Positions 2,102 through 6,466 of a DNA stretch of 11,314 bases are shown here, piece after piece. A model generated the notes under the pieces. It did not search any database. It was not told where the DNA came from and saw only the letters and a list, made by a program, of their open reading frames with translations. The stretch covers positions 1-11,314 of the forward strand of contig JACCXQ010000271.1 of assembly GCA_013696945.1 (NCBI GenBank). The letters run 5' to 3'. The DNA comes from Chloroflexota bacterium. Lineage in GTDB: Bacteria > Chloroflexota > Limnocylindria > Limnocylindrales > CSP1-4. Position 1 is the first letter of the stretch; each line of letters starts with the position of its first letter. Position numbers and translations under genes: made by a program.

Positions 2102-3496
2102 ATGACCGCCCGACACCAGATCAGAGTGGGTGGGAGGCGACTCGGTCGCGACCGTGGAGCCCCCATCGACGCCACCCCCGCGCCGCCGCTCGGTGAGGTG
2201 CTGCGCCTCGCTCGTGAGCGTAAGGGTGTCGATCTCTATCGGGCGGAGCGCGACACGAAGATCCGCGCGAAGCACCTCGAAGCGCTGGAGAACGGCGATT
2301 ACGCGGAGCTCCCCGGCGCGGTCTACACGAAGGGATTCCTGCGCAACTACGCGGTCTACCTTGGCCTTGACCCCGAGGAGACCCTCGAGCGCTGGCGCGA
2401 CGAGACCAGCATGACCCGGCGGAGCGAGGCGGTCGCCGTCGCACCGCCCCGGCCGATCGCCGAGCCGCGGCGGGGTCTCATCTTCACGCGCGGCGTGCTC
2501 GTGGCCGCGCTCATCAGCTTCGTGTTCATCGCGTTCGTGGGCTACGTCGCCCTCCAGGTCGCCCGTTTCTCCCAGACGACGCAGTTTGCCGTGGACCCGC
2601 CGCTCGTGCGCGTGCTAGCCGAGGACGCGGAGACGACCATGCTCTCGGGGACGACCATCGCCGGCGCGACGGTGACGGTGACGGGACCGGTGGACTTCCT
2701 GCGCACGACCGAAGCTGGTTCGAACGGTCGCTGGTCGATGGAGGTCCCGGTCGCCAAGGGTCGGAACGACTTCTCGATCATCGCGCGTGATCCGGACACG
2801 GATCGTGACTCCCCGCCGGTGAACGTCATCGTCACCGTGCCCGTCCCACCCACTCCGGCACCGCCGAGCAGCGGATCATCACCGATCCCGTCGCTCGCGG
2901 CCACGGGACTCACGGTCGCGCTGCCACTCGAGGGCGCCGCCTTCACGGAGGGCGTGGTCCACGTCCAGGGCACGACCGATGGGACGCGCGTCACGATCAC
3001 CGCCGCCCAGGCTGCCCAGCCGGTCCCGAGCGGAGCACCCGCGCCGAGCCTCCCCTCCGCCTCGCCGCGGACGGGACCCGGGGCCGTCACCGCCACACCG
3101 ACCGATGGCTCATTCGAGGCCGATGTCCCGCTCCCGGTCGGTCGCTGGACGCTCACCATCACCGCCACCGCGGAGGGCCGCGTGGACGCGGTCGCGACGC
3201 GGACGGTGTCTGTTGCCTTCGAGGGACTGTCCGTGGCCGTCGAAGCCCAGCGCGGCAATGCTTACATCCAGGTCTGGGTCGATGGGCGACCGCTCGCCGG
3301 CTGGAACCCCGGTCGTGTGCTGCGGCGCGGCGACTCGCAGACGTTCACCGCGAACCGGACCGTCCTGGTCCGGACCGGCAACTCCGGGGCGACCTCATTC
3401 ACGGTCAACGGGGAGCTGCTGGGCCCCCTCGGCGATACCGGGGATGTCGAGAACTGGCTCTTCGAGAAGGGGAGGTCGCCTCGCCGCACCCCGTGA
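2102..3496 (+). CDS. rodZ: RodZ-like membrane-anchored HTH protein with DUF4115 tail
   Basis: The 464-aa protein has the RodZ layout. A cytoplasmic Xre-type helix-turn-helix spans about residues 29-95, including the family-typical L-P-G-A-V-Y-T-K-G-F-L-R-N-Y at 70-83. A basic stretch follows, then one membrane helix at about 131-151, then a long extracytoplasmic part. In RodZ the HTH domain binds MreB and helps set cell shape. The outer part has two Ig-like beta modules (about 160-245 and 270-378) separated by Pro/Ser-rich linkers, ending in a DUF4115 domain from about 380 (I-Q-V-W-V-D-G, then V-R-T-G-N-S-G, then F-T-V-N-G). The start is ATG 2102; it lacks a strong Shine-Dalgarno, and GTG 2126 is an alternative that would also keep the HTH whole. 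The TGA stop overlaps the pncC GTG as GTGA. Direct MreB partnership is inferred, since no mreB is visible here. Confidence 0.85.
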   Translation: MTARHQIRVGGRRLGRDRGAPIDATPAPPLGEVLRLARERKGVDLYRAERDTKIRAKHLEALENGDYAELPGAVYTKGFLRNYAVYLGLDPEETLERWRDETSMTRRSEAVAVAPPRPIAEPRRGLIFTRGVLVAALISFVFIAFVGYVALQVARFSQTTQFAVDPPLVRVLAEDAETTMLSGTTIAGATVTVTGPVDFLRTTEAGSNGRWSMEVPVAKGRNDFSIIARDPDTDRDSPPVNVIVTVPVPPTPAPPSSGSSPIPSLAATGLTVALPLEGAAFTEGVVHVQGTTDGTRVTITAAQAAQPVPSGAPAPSLPSASPRTGPGAVTATPTDGSFEADVPLPVGRWTLTITATAEGRVDAVATRTVSVAFEGLSVAVEAQRGNAYIQVWVDGRPLAGWNPGRVLRRGDSQTFTANRTVLVRTGNSGATSFTVNGELLGPLGDTGDVENWLFEKGRSPRRTP

Positions 3497-3993
3497 ACGG
3501 GGGATCGAGCGACGAGCCCGGGCTGGTCCAGCTGGCGCGCCTCATCCAAGTGCGGTGCTTAGAGCGTGGCCTGACCCTCGCCACCGCCGAGTCGTGCACG
3601 GGTGGCCTGATCGCCCACCTCCTCACCGAGGTCCCCGGGTCCAGCGACTACTTCATCGGCGCGGCGGTGACCTACAGCGACGCGCTGAAGCGCGGCCTGC
3701 TGAACGTGCCGGGCGAGCTGCTGCGGACTGGCGGGGCAGTGTCCGCGGATGTCGCGATCGCGATGGCCGTGGGATGCCGTAGCAAGCTGGGCTCCGACAT
3801 GGCCGTGAGCGTGACGGGCATCGCAGGCCCGGATGGAGGTTCGCCGGAGAAACCCGTCGGGCTGACGTACGTCGCGATCGCGGACGCGGCAGGGCACGAT
3901 GTCCGCCGCTTCGTTTGGTCGGAAGGACGCAGTGGGAACAAGCGCCGCAGCGCGGAAGCCGCGCTCACGCTGCTCCTGGAACGCCTCGCATGA
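3493..3993 (+). CDS. pncC: Nicotinamide-nucleotide amidohydrolase PncC (stand-alone CinA C-terminal domain)
   Basis: The 166-aa protein is the CinA C-terminal domain without the N-terminal MoaB-like half. Members deamidate nicotinamide mononucleotide to nicotinate mononucleotide in pyridine-nucleotide salvage. Family signatures are A-E-S-C-T-G-G at 32-38, whose Ser34 is the expected nucleophile; V-P-G-S-S-D-Y-F-I-G just downstream; then G-A-V-S, V-T-G-I-A-G-P-D-G-G and P-E-K-P-V-G-L. Length fits the stand-alone family (about 160-170 aa). The GTG start at 3493 overlaps the rodZ stop by 4 nt. A GGGGAGGT at 3469-3476 is 16 nt away, too far for an optimal ribosome site, so translation probably depends on coupling to rodZ. 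The stop overlaps the next start as ATGA. cinA beside rodZ is a known arrangement in Firmicutes. Confidence 0.95.
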   Translation: MNGGSSDEPGLVQLARLIQVRCLERGLTLATAESCTGGLIAHLLTEVPGSSDYFIGAAVTYSDALKRGLLNVPGELLRTGGAVSADVAIAMAVGCRSKLGSDMAVSVTGIAGPDGGSPEKPVGLTYVAIADAAGHDVRRFVWSEGRSGNKRRSAEAALTLLLERLA

Positions 3994-5189
3994 CCAGGTC
4001 CGGTCACGAGATCGGCGCCGGCCTCGACCCGGCACGGGCGGCACGCCCCGTCGCCCAAGGCGAGCGTATCCATGTGGTGGGAGCGGCGGGAGCAGGGGCT
4101 TCGGCGGCGGCACTCCTCGCCCATGGCGTGGGAGCCGCCGTCACGGCGTGCGACTCCGGCGGTCCGACGCCGTACGTTCGAGCGCTGGCGCACGAGCGCA
4201 TCCCCATCGAGTGGTCGCATGATCCGGCGCACATCGGCGCCGGGGACAGGGCGTCGGTCGACCGCGTCGCCGTCACCAAGGCCCTCACCTCGGTCGATCC
4301 CGATCACCCTGAGCTGATGGCCGCCCGTCGACTGGGTGTCCCCCTCGAGTCCTGGCAGCAGGTCGTGGCGGATGCGGCCGCAACCACAGGGCAGAGACTC
4401 GTCGCCGTGACGGGCACGCACGGGAAGTCGACGAGCAGCGGCTGGCTGGTCCACCTGCTGGCGCACGCCGGCCGGGATCCGTCCGCCTTCGTCGGTGCGC
4501 TCCTCCCGGCAGCGCTGACCTCAGGCGTCGCGTCCACTGCCCGCCTGGGCGACGGGGACGAGTTCATCGTGGAAGCGGACGAGTACGCTGGGAACTTCGA
4601 CCCATACCACCCACGGATCGCGGTGCTCCTCAACGCCGAGTGGGATCACCCGGACGTCTTCGCGGATGCGGCCGCCGTGCACGATGCGTTCGCTGCCTGG
4701 ATCGAGGCGGCGGCGAACGCGGCCACGGCGGAGGATGGGTCTGGGCTCGTGGTCGTGGCGAACGTCGGTGATGCGGGCATCCGAGCGGTCCTGGAACGCG
4801 TCCGCGGCGAGCATGTGCGCGTGGTCGGTGCCGCGCTCGCGGATGAGGCATCGGCCGTGCCTGATGGGACCGAGGTCATCGGTACCCTGGCAGACGGGAT
4901 CCTGCGACTCGACGGCGTCGGCGATGCTCCCGTCTGGGTCCGGATGCCGCTTGACGGGCGCCACAATGCGGCCAATGCTGTCTGCGTAGCTGCGGCTGCG
5001 TTCGAGCTCGGCGTCCCAGGCGACCAGATCGGCGCGGGCCTGGCATCGTTCGGGGGCGTCGGACGACGGATGGAACTCATGGGCGAGCCGCGCGGTGTGA
5101 CCGTGCTCGACGACTACGGCCATCACCCGACGGCTATCGCGGCGACGCTCGATGCTGTCCAGGGTCGCTATCCCGGCCGGCCCGTCTGA
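3990..5189 (+). CDS. murC: MurC-type Mur ligase, reading frame cut by in-frame TGA
   Basis: MurC couples L-alanine to UDP-N-acetylmuramate using ATP, the first amino-acid step of peptidoglycan precursor synthesis in the cytoplasm. ATG 3990 overlaps the pncC stop (ATGA) and fixes the start. The 399 residues hold the N-terminal Rossmann-like domain (I-H-V-V-G-A-A-G-A-G near 28-37), the ATP loop G-T-H-G-K-S-T at 142-148, the E-A-D-E-Y motif with a following L-N-A-E-W-D-H-P, H325-N326 of the H-N-x-x-N motif, G-V-G-R-R-M-E, and D-D-Y-G-H-H-P at 374-380. The frame then ends at TGA 5187-5189 after Y-P-G-R-P-V, about 110 residues short of a full enzyme. The missing part follows in the same frame. MurC is favoured over Mpl or MurD by the H-H-P and E-A-D-E signatures, but it is divergent. 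It may not be the only copy, since no other dcw-cluster gene is nearby. Confidence 0.85.
   Translation: MTRSGHEIGAGLDPARAARPVAQGERIHVVGAAGAGASAAALLAHGVGAAVTACDSGGPTPYVRALAHERIPIEWSHDPAHIGAGDRASVDRVAVTKALTSVDPDHPELMAARRLGVPLESWQQVVADAAATTGQRLVAVTGTHGKSTSSGWLVHLLAHAGRDPSAFVGALLPAALTSGVASTARLGDGDEFIVEADEYAGNFDPYHPRIAVLLNAEWDHPDVFADAAAVHDAFAAWIEAAANAATAEDGSGLVVVANVGDAGIRAVLERVRGEHVRVVGAALADEASAVPDGTEVIGTLADGILRLDGVGDAPVWVRMPLDGRHNAANAVCVAAAAFELGVPGDQIGAGLASFGGVGRRMELMGEPRGVTVLDDYGHHPTAIAATLDAVQGRYPGRPV
5187..5189 (+). other. In-frame TGA interrupting the Mur ligase, at a probable Trp/hydrophobic position
   Basis: Read in the 3990 frame, the codons run CGG CCC GTC TGA GCC GTC TAC GAG CCA. The residues either side align to the MurC segment usually written R-R-x-x-A-V-F-Q-P-H, so TGA replaces the third residue before the aromatic F/Y. 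That residue is V in Escherichia coli and Bacillus subtilis MurC and, from memory, often W in high-GC lineages. One G-to-A change (TGG to TGA) is the simplest origin. Other genes here stop normally at TGA and use TGG for Trp, so a code change is unlikely. Confidence 0.9.
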
Positions 5190-5525
5190 GCCGTCTACGA
5201 GCCACTGACCTACCACCGGACGGCGGCGATGCTCGATGAGTTCGCCGTGGTGCTGGCGCGAGCCGACCACGCCGTCATCGCGGACATCTGGGCGGGCCGT
5301 GACCCGGACACGACCATCACCAGCGCAGACGCTCTCGCCCGCGCGGTCTCAGCGAAGGCTGTCGAGGCTGCCACCGCCCCCGGCAGCGTCGAGCGCACGG
5401 CGGATCATCTCGCTGAGCGCGTGCGCCCGGGCGATGTCGTCCTCGTGATGGGCGGCGGACGCTCATACGTCATCGCGGAGCGGCTCATCGCCCTCCTGTC
5501 CGATGCGAGCGCCGCGGGCCGCTAG
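5190..5525 (+). pseudogene. murC: In-frame C-terminal remainder of the Mur ligase after the TGA
   Basis: These 111 codons continue the Mur ligase C-terminal (amino-acid-binding) domain without any frame change: A-V-Y-E-P-L-T-Y-H-R-T corresponds to the family's A-V-F-Q-P-H-x-Y-x-R-T, D-I-W-A-G-R-D to the D-I-Y-x-A-R-E segment, and G-D-V-V-L-V-M-G-G-G to the G-D-x-x-L-x-x-G-A-G-D segment. The stop is TAG at 5523-5525. With the TGA read as an amino acid, the whole protein would be 511 residues, within the family range. If expressed separately, the first ATG is at 5229, but it has no Shine-Dalgarno and would lose the conserved Y-E-P motif. A separate gene is therefore unlikely. Either the whole locus is a recent pseudogene, or the TGA is an error or is read through. 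The Gln and His of F-Q-P-H are Glu and Leu here, and G-A-G-D is G-G-G-R. Confidence 0.8.
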
Positions 5526-5528
5526 ACT
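5523..5528 (+). promoter_or_regulatory. Candidate -10 element (TAGACT) overlapping the murC stop
   Basis: TAGACT fits the TAnnnT core of sigma-70-type -10 elements. Its TAG is the murC stop codon, and it ends 10 nt before the ATG at 5539. Transcription would start only a few bases before that codon, giving a nearly leaderless mRNA. No clear -35 is seen. Such a promoter would free the downstream genes from polarity caused by the TGA in murC. Confidence 0.4.
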
Positions 5529-5538
5529 CTCGCGGGAA

Positions 5539-5979
5539 ATGCCCGACCTGACACCCGGTGACGGCCAGGATCTCCTCGAGCGCTACAAGCGCGCATGGGA
5601 GGGCCGTGACGCGGACGCAGCGATGGAGCTCTACGCGCCAGATGCCGAACACCGTGATCACCCATTCCGTGAGCCCTTCGTGGGGCAGAACGACATCCGC
5701 GCGATGTGGAACGACATCTGCGCCGGCCAGGCCCATATCGAGTTCGACGCGGAGCGTGTCTGGGTCGCCGGTCGGACCGTCCTGGCGAGCTGGCACGCCG
5801 CATACACGGATCGGACGAACGCGCGGCGTGTTCGGATGAGGGGGTTCGCGACGTTCGAGCTCGACGACGCCGGCCGGATCCAGCGCGTCCGCGAGTGGCC
5901 GATGTCTCAAGTGGTCGGCGTGGACAGCACGTTCATCCCGGACCGACAGGAACAGGGGAGGACGGGGCATGGCAGGTGA
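5539..5979 (+). CDS. SnoaL/NTF2-like family protein
   Basis: This 146-aa protein has the sequence pattern of the small NTF2-like cone fold (SnoaL-like, nuclear transport factor 2 family). A helical start (L-L-E-R-Y-K-R-A-W-E-G-R-D) is followed by A-M-E-L-Y-A-P-D-A-E-H-R-D-H-P-F, the G-Q-N-D-I-R-A-M-W segment, and then four beta strands ending in I-Q-R-V-R-E-W. The family includes polyketide cyclases, steroid isomerases, limonene-epoxide hydrolases and many proteins without known activity, so substrate and reaction cannot be assigned. The ATG at 5539 is preferred over an in-frame upstream start at 5503 because the upstream residues overlap the murC end, look non-conserved, and would lie before the candidate promoter. 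The last 11 nt overlap yajQ, and the yajQ ribosome site lies inside this gene's tail, which suggests coupled translation. There is no signal peptide. Confidence 0.8.
   Translation: MPDLTPGDGQDLLERYKRAWEGRDADAAMELYAPDAEHRDHPFREPFVGQNDIRAMWNDICAGQAHIEFDAERVWVAGRTVLASWHAAYTDRTNARRVRMRGFATFELDDAGRIQRVREWPMSQVVGVDSTFIPDRQEQGRTGHGR
5955..5962 (+). promoter_or_regulatory. Shine-Dalgarno (GGGGAGGA) of yajQ
   Basis: A strong purine-rich site lies six nt before the ATG at 5969, inside the end of the NTF2-like gene. It fixes the yajQ start and contrasts with the minus-strand genes here, which lack such sites. Confidence 0.75.
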
Positions 5980-6466
5980 CGTCTCGTTCGACGTCGTGAG
6001 CGACTTCGATCGGCAGGAGCTCGTGAATGCGCTCGACCAGGTGCGCCGCGAGATGGCCACGCGCTATGACTTCAAAGGCGCCAAGGCGGACATCGAGCTC
6101 GGCAAGGACGAGCTGGTGATCCGCGTCGACACCGACCATCGCGCTCAGGCCATCCGCGATCTGGTCGAGTCCAAGGCCATCCGGCGCGGCCTCTCGCTCA
6201 AGATCTTCGACTGGGGGGAGGTCGAGCCGGCCGGAGGAGACACCGTCCGTCAGCAGGTGACGCTCCGTCGGGGCCTGCCCGAGGACGTCGCCAAGCGGAT
6301 CTCGAAGCTCATCCGCGACGACTTCCCGAAGCTGAAGTCGCAGATCCAGGGCGATGCCGTGCGCGTCAGTGGGAAGAACAAGGACGATCTTCAGAAGGTC
6401 ATCGGCCGGCTCCGCGAGGAAGGGGAGGGCTACCCGGTGGCACTCCAGTTCCAGAACTACCGCTAG
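5969..6466 (+). CDS. yajQ: YajQ family nucleotide-binding protein (DUF520)
   Basis: The 165-aa protein matches YajQ over its full length (family about 160-165 aa): S-F-D-V-V-S near the start, T-R-Y-D-F-K-G at about residues 30-36, a central R-Q-Q-V-T-L-R-R-G, then I-R-D-D-F-P-K-L-K-S-Q-I-Q-G-D-A-V-R-V-S-G-K and D-D-L-Q-K-V-I near the end, closing with Q-F-Q-N-Y-R. YajQ has two ferredoxin-like subdomains. Xanthomonas members bind cyclic-di-GMP and act with a transcription factor, while other members bind tRNA or GTP or associate with phage transcription, so the role here is open. No diguanylate cyclase or cognate regulator is visible. The start overlaps the preceding gene by 11 nt and the stop (TAG) is 9 nt before the ThDP enzyme gene, so all three genes are probably co-transcribed. 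Confidence 0.95.
   Translation: MAGDVSFDVVSDFDRQELVNALDQVRREMATRYDFKGAKADIELGKDELVIRVDTDHRAQAIRDLVESKAIRRGLSLKIFDWGEVEPAGGDTVRQQVTLRRGLPEDVAKRISKLIRDDFPKLKSQIQGDAVRVSGKNKDDLQKVIGRLREEGEGYPVALQFQNYR

What the first reader, a model, noticed from the sequence alone, without database searches (positions are those of the whole stretch)
5160..5525. Mur ligase split by one in-frame TGA at a probable Trp position
Frame 3990-5186 and frame 5190-5522 are the same frame, and together they give a complete 511-codon MurC-type enzyme. Only one codon (TGA, 5187-5189) breaks it, at the residue three before the aromatic of the F-Q-P-H-like motif, where V or W is usual. The downstream part is free of stops for 111 codons and keeps recognisable family segments, so any decay is very recent. 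Options: a TGG-to-TGA nonsense mutation in a redundant ligase, a sequencing or assembly error, or functional readthrough. A second intact murC elsewhere would make a true pseudogene plausible.
Basis: partly seen in the sequence, partly recalled or inferred. Interest (0 to 1): 0.72.

Follow-up and report, generated by a model that had tools for sequence, protein, structure and literature searches.

The report
One-base stop in a murC gene
A cell-wall gene in a draft genome of an uncultured Chloroflexota bacterium is cut by one premature stop codon where close relatives encode tryptophan; a near-identical intact copy exists on another contig, so this is most likely a sequence error or a fresh dead allele, and it is ordinary.

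Summary
A 511-codon MurC-type ligase gene (3990-5525, +) is open except for one in-frame TGA at 5187-5189, codon 400. The aligned codon is TGG in 23 of 29 relative loci, including all 4 same-genus ones, and Ile, Val or Leu in the other 6; none has a stop there. A protein from a separate 3,645-base contig is 508/511 identical, full length, with Trp at 400. Conservation continues undiminished after the stop. No second MurC-type gene was found in the 65%-complete draft. TGA is used as a stop here, and 14 tRNAs include none with UCA. Best reading: a one-base consensus error in a draft metagenome assembly; next, a real, very recent nonsense allele. Readthrough, recoding and two separate products have no support. 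Against the error reading: two relatives, 93% and 87% complete, show no MurC-type gene, and one of them lacks it cleanly at this very locus, so the gene may be dispensable or movable. Without raw reads, error and true allele cannot be separated.

The parts
3990..5186 (+). 5' part of the MurC-type ligase gene: N-terminal domain, middle (ATP) domain and about the first 40 residues of the C-terminal domain
   Evidence: Pfam PF01225, PF08245 and PF02875 positions 1-39; TIGR01082 positions 1-342, 209 bits, below its cut-off of 335.1
5187..5189 (+). in-frame TGA, codon 400 of 511
   Evidence: the aligned codon is TGG in 23 of 29 relative loci and Ile/Val/Leu in 6 of 29; Trp in P0001
5190..5525 (+). 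3' part of the same gene: the remaining 111 codons of the C-terminal domain, then TAG
   Evidence: PF02875 positions 53-126 (just under cut-off) and TIGR01082 positions 351-448; 72-81% amino-acid identity to the five relatives compared, higher than the part before the stop
3493..3993 (+). cinA-type gene upstream, ending in TGA that overlaps the murC ATG
   Evidence: PF02464; stop codon TGA
5503..5979 (+). SnoaL-like gene downstream (an alternative in-frame ATG lies at 5539)
   Evidence: PF12680; sequence
5969..6466 (+). yajQ-type gene, a conserved neighbour
   Evidence: NF003819 above its cut-off; found in 25 of 29 relative loci

Best explanation
The gene is an ordinary single-copy MurC-type UDP-N-acetylmuramate ligase gene. 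The TGA is most likely a one-base error in the consensus of a fragmented draft metagenome assembly, and the living population carries the intact gene. Shown: one stop; an otherwise intact frame that is as constrained after the stop as before it; Trp at this codon in the same-genus relatives and in a 508/511-identical protein from another contig. Inferred: that the base is wrong and not a true allele.
For: One stop in 511 codons with no other damage. TGG in all 4 same-genus loci and in 23 of 29 loci overall. P0001, on a 3,645-base contig and not the window's 11,314-base contig, is intact with Trp at 400 and differs at only 2 other residues. After the stop dN is 0.16-0.25 with dS 0.8-1.3 against five relatives, lower in dN than before it. 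No other gene in the genomes searched scores like a MurC, so a fixed null would be expected to be harmful (that MurC is essential in peptidoglycan-making bacteria is recalled knowledge, not tested here). The genome is a 342-contig draft, 65% complete.
Against: No reads, quality or coverage were available. The draft is not visibly error-rich: 0 of 33 ABC_tran and 0 of 6 adh_short matches hold a stop, and a coarse scan of 184 kb showed no other interrupted gene. P0001 differs at two further residues, so it is another strain's sequence and does not show what this strain has. G027 (93% complete) and G028 (87%) show no MurC-type gene; in G027 cinA and yajQ are neighbours with no murC between them.
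Confidence: 0.57

Rival explanations
1. A real, very recent nonsense mutation in this strain. The product would end after 399 residues and lack most of the C-terminal domain, so it should be inactive. The allele would be doomed, rare in the population, or tolerated because the gene is dispensable or backed up in the unassembled part of the genome.
For: One codon changed with an unaltered remainder. A sister sequence with two other residue differences shows that strain variation exists. The stop is isolated, with no sign of general error in the draft. Two relatives show no MurC-type gene, one of them with the locus closed up.
Against: No second MurC-type gene was found in the draft or in the relatives searched, though the draft is only 65% complete. 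The gene is under purifying selection in the relatives compared.
Confidence: 0.35
2. Leaky or programmed readthrough: UGA is decoded at some rate, for example by tRNA-Trp, so that some full-length MurC is made.
For: The position is Trp in close relatives, and near-cognate UGA decoding by tRNA-Trp (recalled knowledge) would give that residue. Conservation continues after the stop.
Against: The stop is not shared (0 of 29 loci). RF2 is present. The one Trp tRNA found has anticodon CCA and none of 14 tRNAs has UCA, in an incomplete genome. No tRNA-Sec above its cut-off. The RNA after the stop folds no better than shuffles, z -0.40. No Rfam match in the window at gathering thresholds.
Confidence: 0.05
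3. Two separate products: the C-terminal part is translated on its own, for example from the ATG at 5229, as a split enzyme.
For: A 98-aa downstream ORF exists and is in the database from the window's own contig (P0121, 11,314 bases, two member sequences).
Against: The 29 loci and the copies of G015, G034 and G039 run straight through this place. P0001 is continuous. The 568 short proteins matched were not examined one by one; many lie on contigs of about 1 kb and are probably contig-edge fragments.
Confidence: 0.03

Closest known systems
MurC, UDP-N-acetylmuramate--L-alanine ligase (TIGR01082; solved examples 9ir5, 7bva, 2f00)
   Same: All three Mur ligase domains, a GTHGKST segment, MurC chains as the best solved relatives of P0001 over residues 26-500; best NCBIfam model is murC
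   Different: Below NCBI's curated cut-off, as in all 37 genomes and all 5; interrupted by TGA here
Nonsense variant or consensus error in a draft metagenome-assembled genome (kind recalled, no paper found)
   Same: One codon, no further decay, intact near-identical copy elsewhere
   Different: Reads were not available, so neither is proven
Mpl, UDP-N-acetylmuramate:tripeptide ligase (TIGR01081)
   Same: Second-best model over the same stretch
   Different: Lower score than MurC: 139.9 against 209 bits

Membership tests
MurC (TIGR01082) | score over the curated cut-off of 335.1 bits | tested here: not met
   209 bits for the 5' part and 265.6 bits for the locus read across the stop; 0 of 37 genomes and 0 of 5 reach the cut-off, so the clade's enzyme is divergent
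MurC (TIGR01082) | three Mur ligase domains in order | tested here: met
   PF01225, PF08245, PF02875 in the 5' part, all over their cut-offs; PF02875 goes on in the 3' part at 26.9 bits, just under 28.4
MurC (TIGR01082) | closer to MurC than to MurD, MurE, MurF or Mpl | tested here: met
   best NCBIfam model is murC; the ten best solved chains are all named UDP-N-acetylmuramate(--)L-alanine ligase
MurC (TIGR01082) | L-alanine ligase activity | not testable with these tools
   needs biochemistry
Programmed UGA readthrough or selenoprotein | stop conserved among relatives | tested here: not met
   0 of 29 loci have a stop at this codon
Programmed UGA readthrough or selenoprotein | decoding machinery (tRNA-Sec or UCA tRNA) | tested here: inconclusive
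   five tRNA-Sec matches, none above the cut-off; no UCA among 14 tRNAs; but the genome is 65% complete and 14 tRNAs are a partial set
Genetic code with TGA = Trp | TGA not used as a stop; RF2 absent | tested here: not met
   6 of the 10 other window frames listed end in TGA; the prfB model is matched over its cut-off
Old pseudogene | relaxed constraint after the stop | tested here: not met
   dN is lower after the stop than before it against each of the five relatives compared

The most novel reading that the evidence does not exclude
The TGA is real in a living strain and MurC is made by near-cognate UGA decoding with Trp, so that a cell-wall enzyme runs on low-level readthrough; or this is the first step of a loss of MurC that relatives such as G027 may already have completed.
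Probability: 0.05. Interest if true: 0.45.

Novelty: not a real feature. Interest (0 to 1): 0.09.

Why it matters
It matters mainly for annotation: the locus is predicted as separate pieces (a 424-aa ORF by the first possible start and a 98-aa ORF; the 98-aa piece is in the database), which could be misread as a lost or split MurC. If the stop were real and tolerated, it would be a natural case of a cell-wall enzyme depending on stop-codon leakage, or of MurC being dispensable in this group.

Tried and rejected
Redundant ligase: the other three Mur_ligase_M loci of the draft read as MurE-type, MurD-type (between MraY- and FtsW-like frames) and cyanophycin-synthetase-type. These names are my own reading of the translations; no family search was run on them. 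As MurC they score 90.5 bits (C104) and 81.2 bits (C259) against 265.6 for this locus.

Genome-wide TGA recoding, selenocysteine and a structured readthrough signal: not supported.

Stops in relatives: one search flagged one stop each in G008, G015, G030, G034 and G039. Read, these are the ordinary ends of those genes. Partial matches that end or begin at codons 397-398 in G047 and G014 are contig ends. Pieces in G005, G006, G018, G024, G031, G032 and G033 were not read.

Essentiality: first taken as a strong argument, then weakened. On rechecking I saw that G027 and G028 gave only weak matches. One search found no MurC-type gene in them. Searches showed ftsK-, rodZ-, cinA-, yajQ- and TPP-type genes of G027 in order with murC and the SnoaL-like gene missing between cinA and yajQ. 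G028 showed no yajQ either, so its locus may simply be unassembled. In one named record (L045) murC lies about 2 kb beyond yajQ, so the gene can sit elsewhere.

One search read the minus-strand loci in the wrong orientation; it was discarded and redone. Two paper searches on nonsense variants or assembly errors in metagenome-assembled genomes gave 0 papers, which does not show that nothing is in print. From PMC10608941 I saw the search listing and passages, not the whole text; it did not bear on the stop.

Full report
What is there. The window is a whole contig (C215, 11,314 bases) of a 1.76-Mb draft genome in 342 contigs, 65% complete. Database relatives bear the names Chloroflexota and Candidatus Limnocylindrales. 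A MurC-type ligase gene runs from 3990 to 5525 on the + strand, right after a cinA-type gene whose TGA stop overlaps the ATG. It is open for 511 codons except for TGA at codon 400 (5187-5189). Both sides of the stop match consecutive parts of the same models.

What relatives have. One search covered 60 relative genomes besides the own one; it fetched loci for 29 of them, and all 29 were aligned. The codon is TGG in 23, including all 4 same-genus loci, and Ile (3), Val (2) or Leu (1) in the six loci of the other family of the order. None is a stop. Of the genomes read afterwards, G014, G015 and G034 have Trp, G039 has Leu and G047 has Ile; G045 is cut off by its contig before this place. Among the 120 database proteins listed, out of 3,883 matches, 118 have Trp, 1 Leu and 1 Ile. 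That database holds predicted proteins and the search is limited by length, so interrupted genes are under-represented in it.

A near-identical intact copy. P0001 (511 aa, on a contig of 3,645 bases) is 508/511 identical to the window gene; the differences are Trp at 400 and two other residues. Its source is not shown by the tool. The window's own downstream piece appears separately as P0121 with the contig length 11,314, so I take P0001 to be from another contig. P0121 stands for two member sequences and P0001 for three; whether any of these members shares the stop cannot be seen.

No decay. Identity to the five relatives compared (four of the genus and G010) is 72-81% after the stop and 61-67% before it. 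dN after the stop is 0.16-0.25 against 0.27-0.32 before, with dS 0.8-1.5 (dS is high and rough). GC at the three codon positions is similar: 0.79/0.54/0.81 before, 0.76/0.54/0.86 after.

What would be lost. PF02875 starts at residue 359. The stop leaves about 40 residues of this domain and removes 111, so the 399-residue product should be inactive (inference).

Is there a spare? With the full protein the own genome has one match. In the 37 genomes the highest match outside this locus is 110.8 bits, against 223.9-287.5 for copies matched whole; many relatives' copies were reported in pieces at lower scores, and the tail of the listing was cut. No genome reaches the curated murC cut-off, so the name MurC-type rests on best-model and best-structure matches.

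Results against the idea of an indispensable gene. G012 (62% complete) shows no copy, and G014 (66%), G045 (89%) and G047 (79%) only copies cut by contig ends. More telling, G027 (93%) and G028 (87%) give no MurC-type match: best 94.8 and 106.5 bits, in the range of the other ligases. In G027 the neighbours are in their usual order with cinA and yajQ next to each other and no murC. The gene may have moved to an unassembled part or been lost; these tools cannot say which. Of 29 loci, 2 (L013, L025) have none of the four tested neighbours in the fetched flanks, and in L045 murC lies beyond yajQ, so relocation does occur.

Is TGA a stop here? A prfB match over its cut-off is present. Of the 10 frames other than murC listed, 6 end in TGA (among them the ftsK-, rodZ-, cinA- and SnoaL-type genes) and 4 in TAG. 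Fourteen tRNAs were found: Trp has CCA and none has UCA. tRNA-Sec stays below its cut-off. The RNA after the stop is unremarkable and Rfam finds nothing at gathering thresholds.

How common are such stops in this draft? None in 33 ABC_tran matches or 6 adh_short matches. A coding-score scan of 184,218 bases (window plus 20 contigs) gave 7 same-frame junctions. By my reading of their translations six are ordinary gene boundaries and one is this gene. The scan was trained on the window's own genes, its sensitivity was not measured, and it does not detect frameshifts or arms under 60 codons.

Verdict. A consensus error is favoured because the frame is otherwise untouched and a near-identical intact copy exists. 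A genuine recent nonsense allele is the main rival, and a somewhat stronger one since relatives without a visible MurC-type gene were found. Raw reads would decide.

Noticed in passing
L171 (G027:C9:32000-39697), locus positions about 4745-5798: In a 93%-complete relative of the same family cinA and yajQ are neighbours and murC and the SnoaL-like gene are missing between them; no MurC-type gene was found elsewhere in that genome. Loss of MurC or relocation to an unassembled part is open.
   Followed up: partly
window 2102-6466: cinA, murC-type and yajQ form a conserved neighbourhood: cinA is found near murC in 21 of 29 and yajQ in 25 of 29 relative loci within the fetched flanks.
   Followed up: partly
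L002 (C104 of the own genome): A MurD-type gene sits between MraY- and FtsW-like frames (my reading), on a different contig from the MurC-type gene, which has cinA and SnoaL/yajQ-type neighbours.
   Followed up: no
L141 (G047) and L142 (G014): Contigs of two relatives end at nearly the same place in the gene (codons 397-399). It looks like coincidence at contig ends, not stops.
   Followed up: yes
window 5503-5541: The SnoaL-like frame could start at 5503, overlapping the end of murC, or at the in-frame ATG at 5539, after it.
   Followed up: no
genomes: None of the 37 and 5 genomes searched reaches NCBI's curated murC cut-off, so automatic annotation may miss MurC in this clade; some records call the relatives cyanophycin synthetase.
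   Followed up: partly
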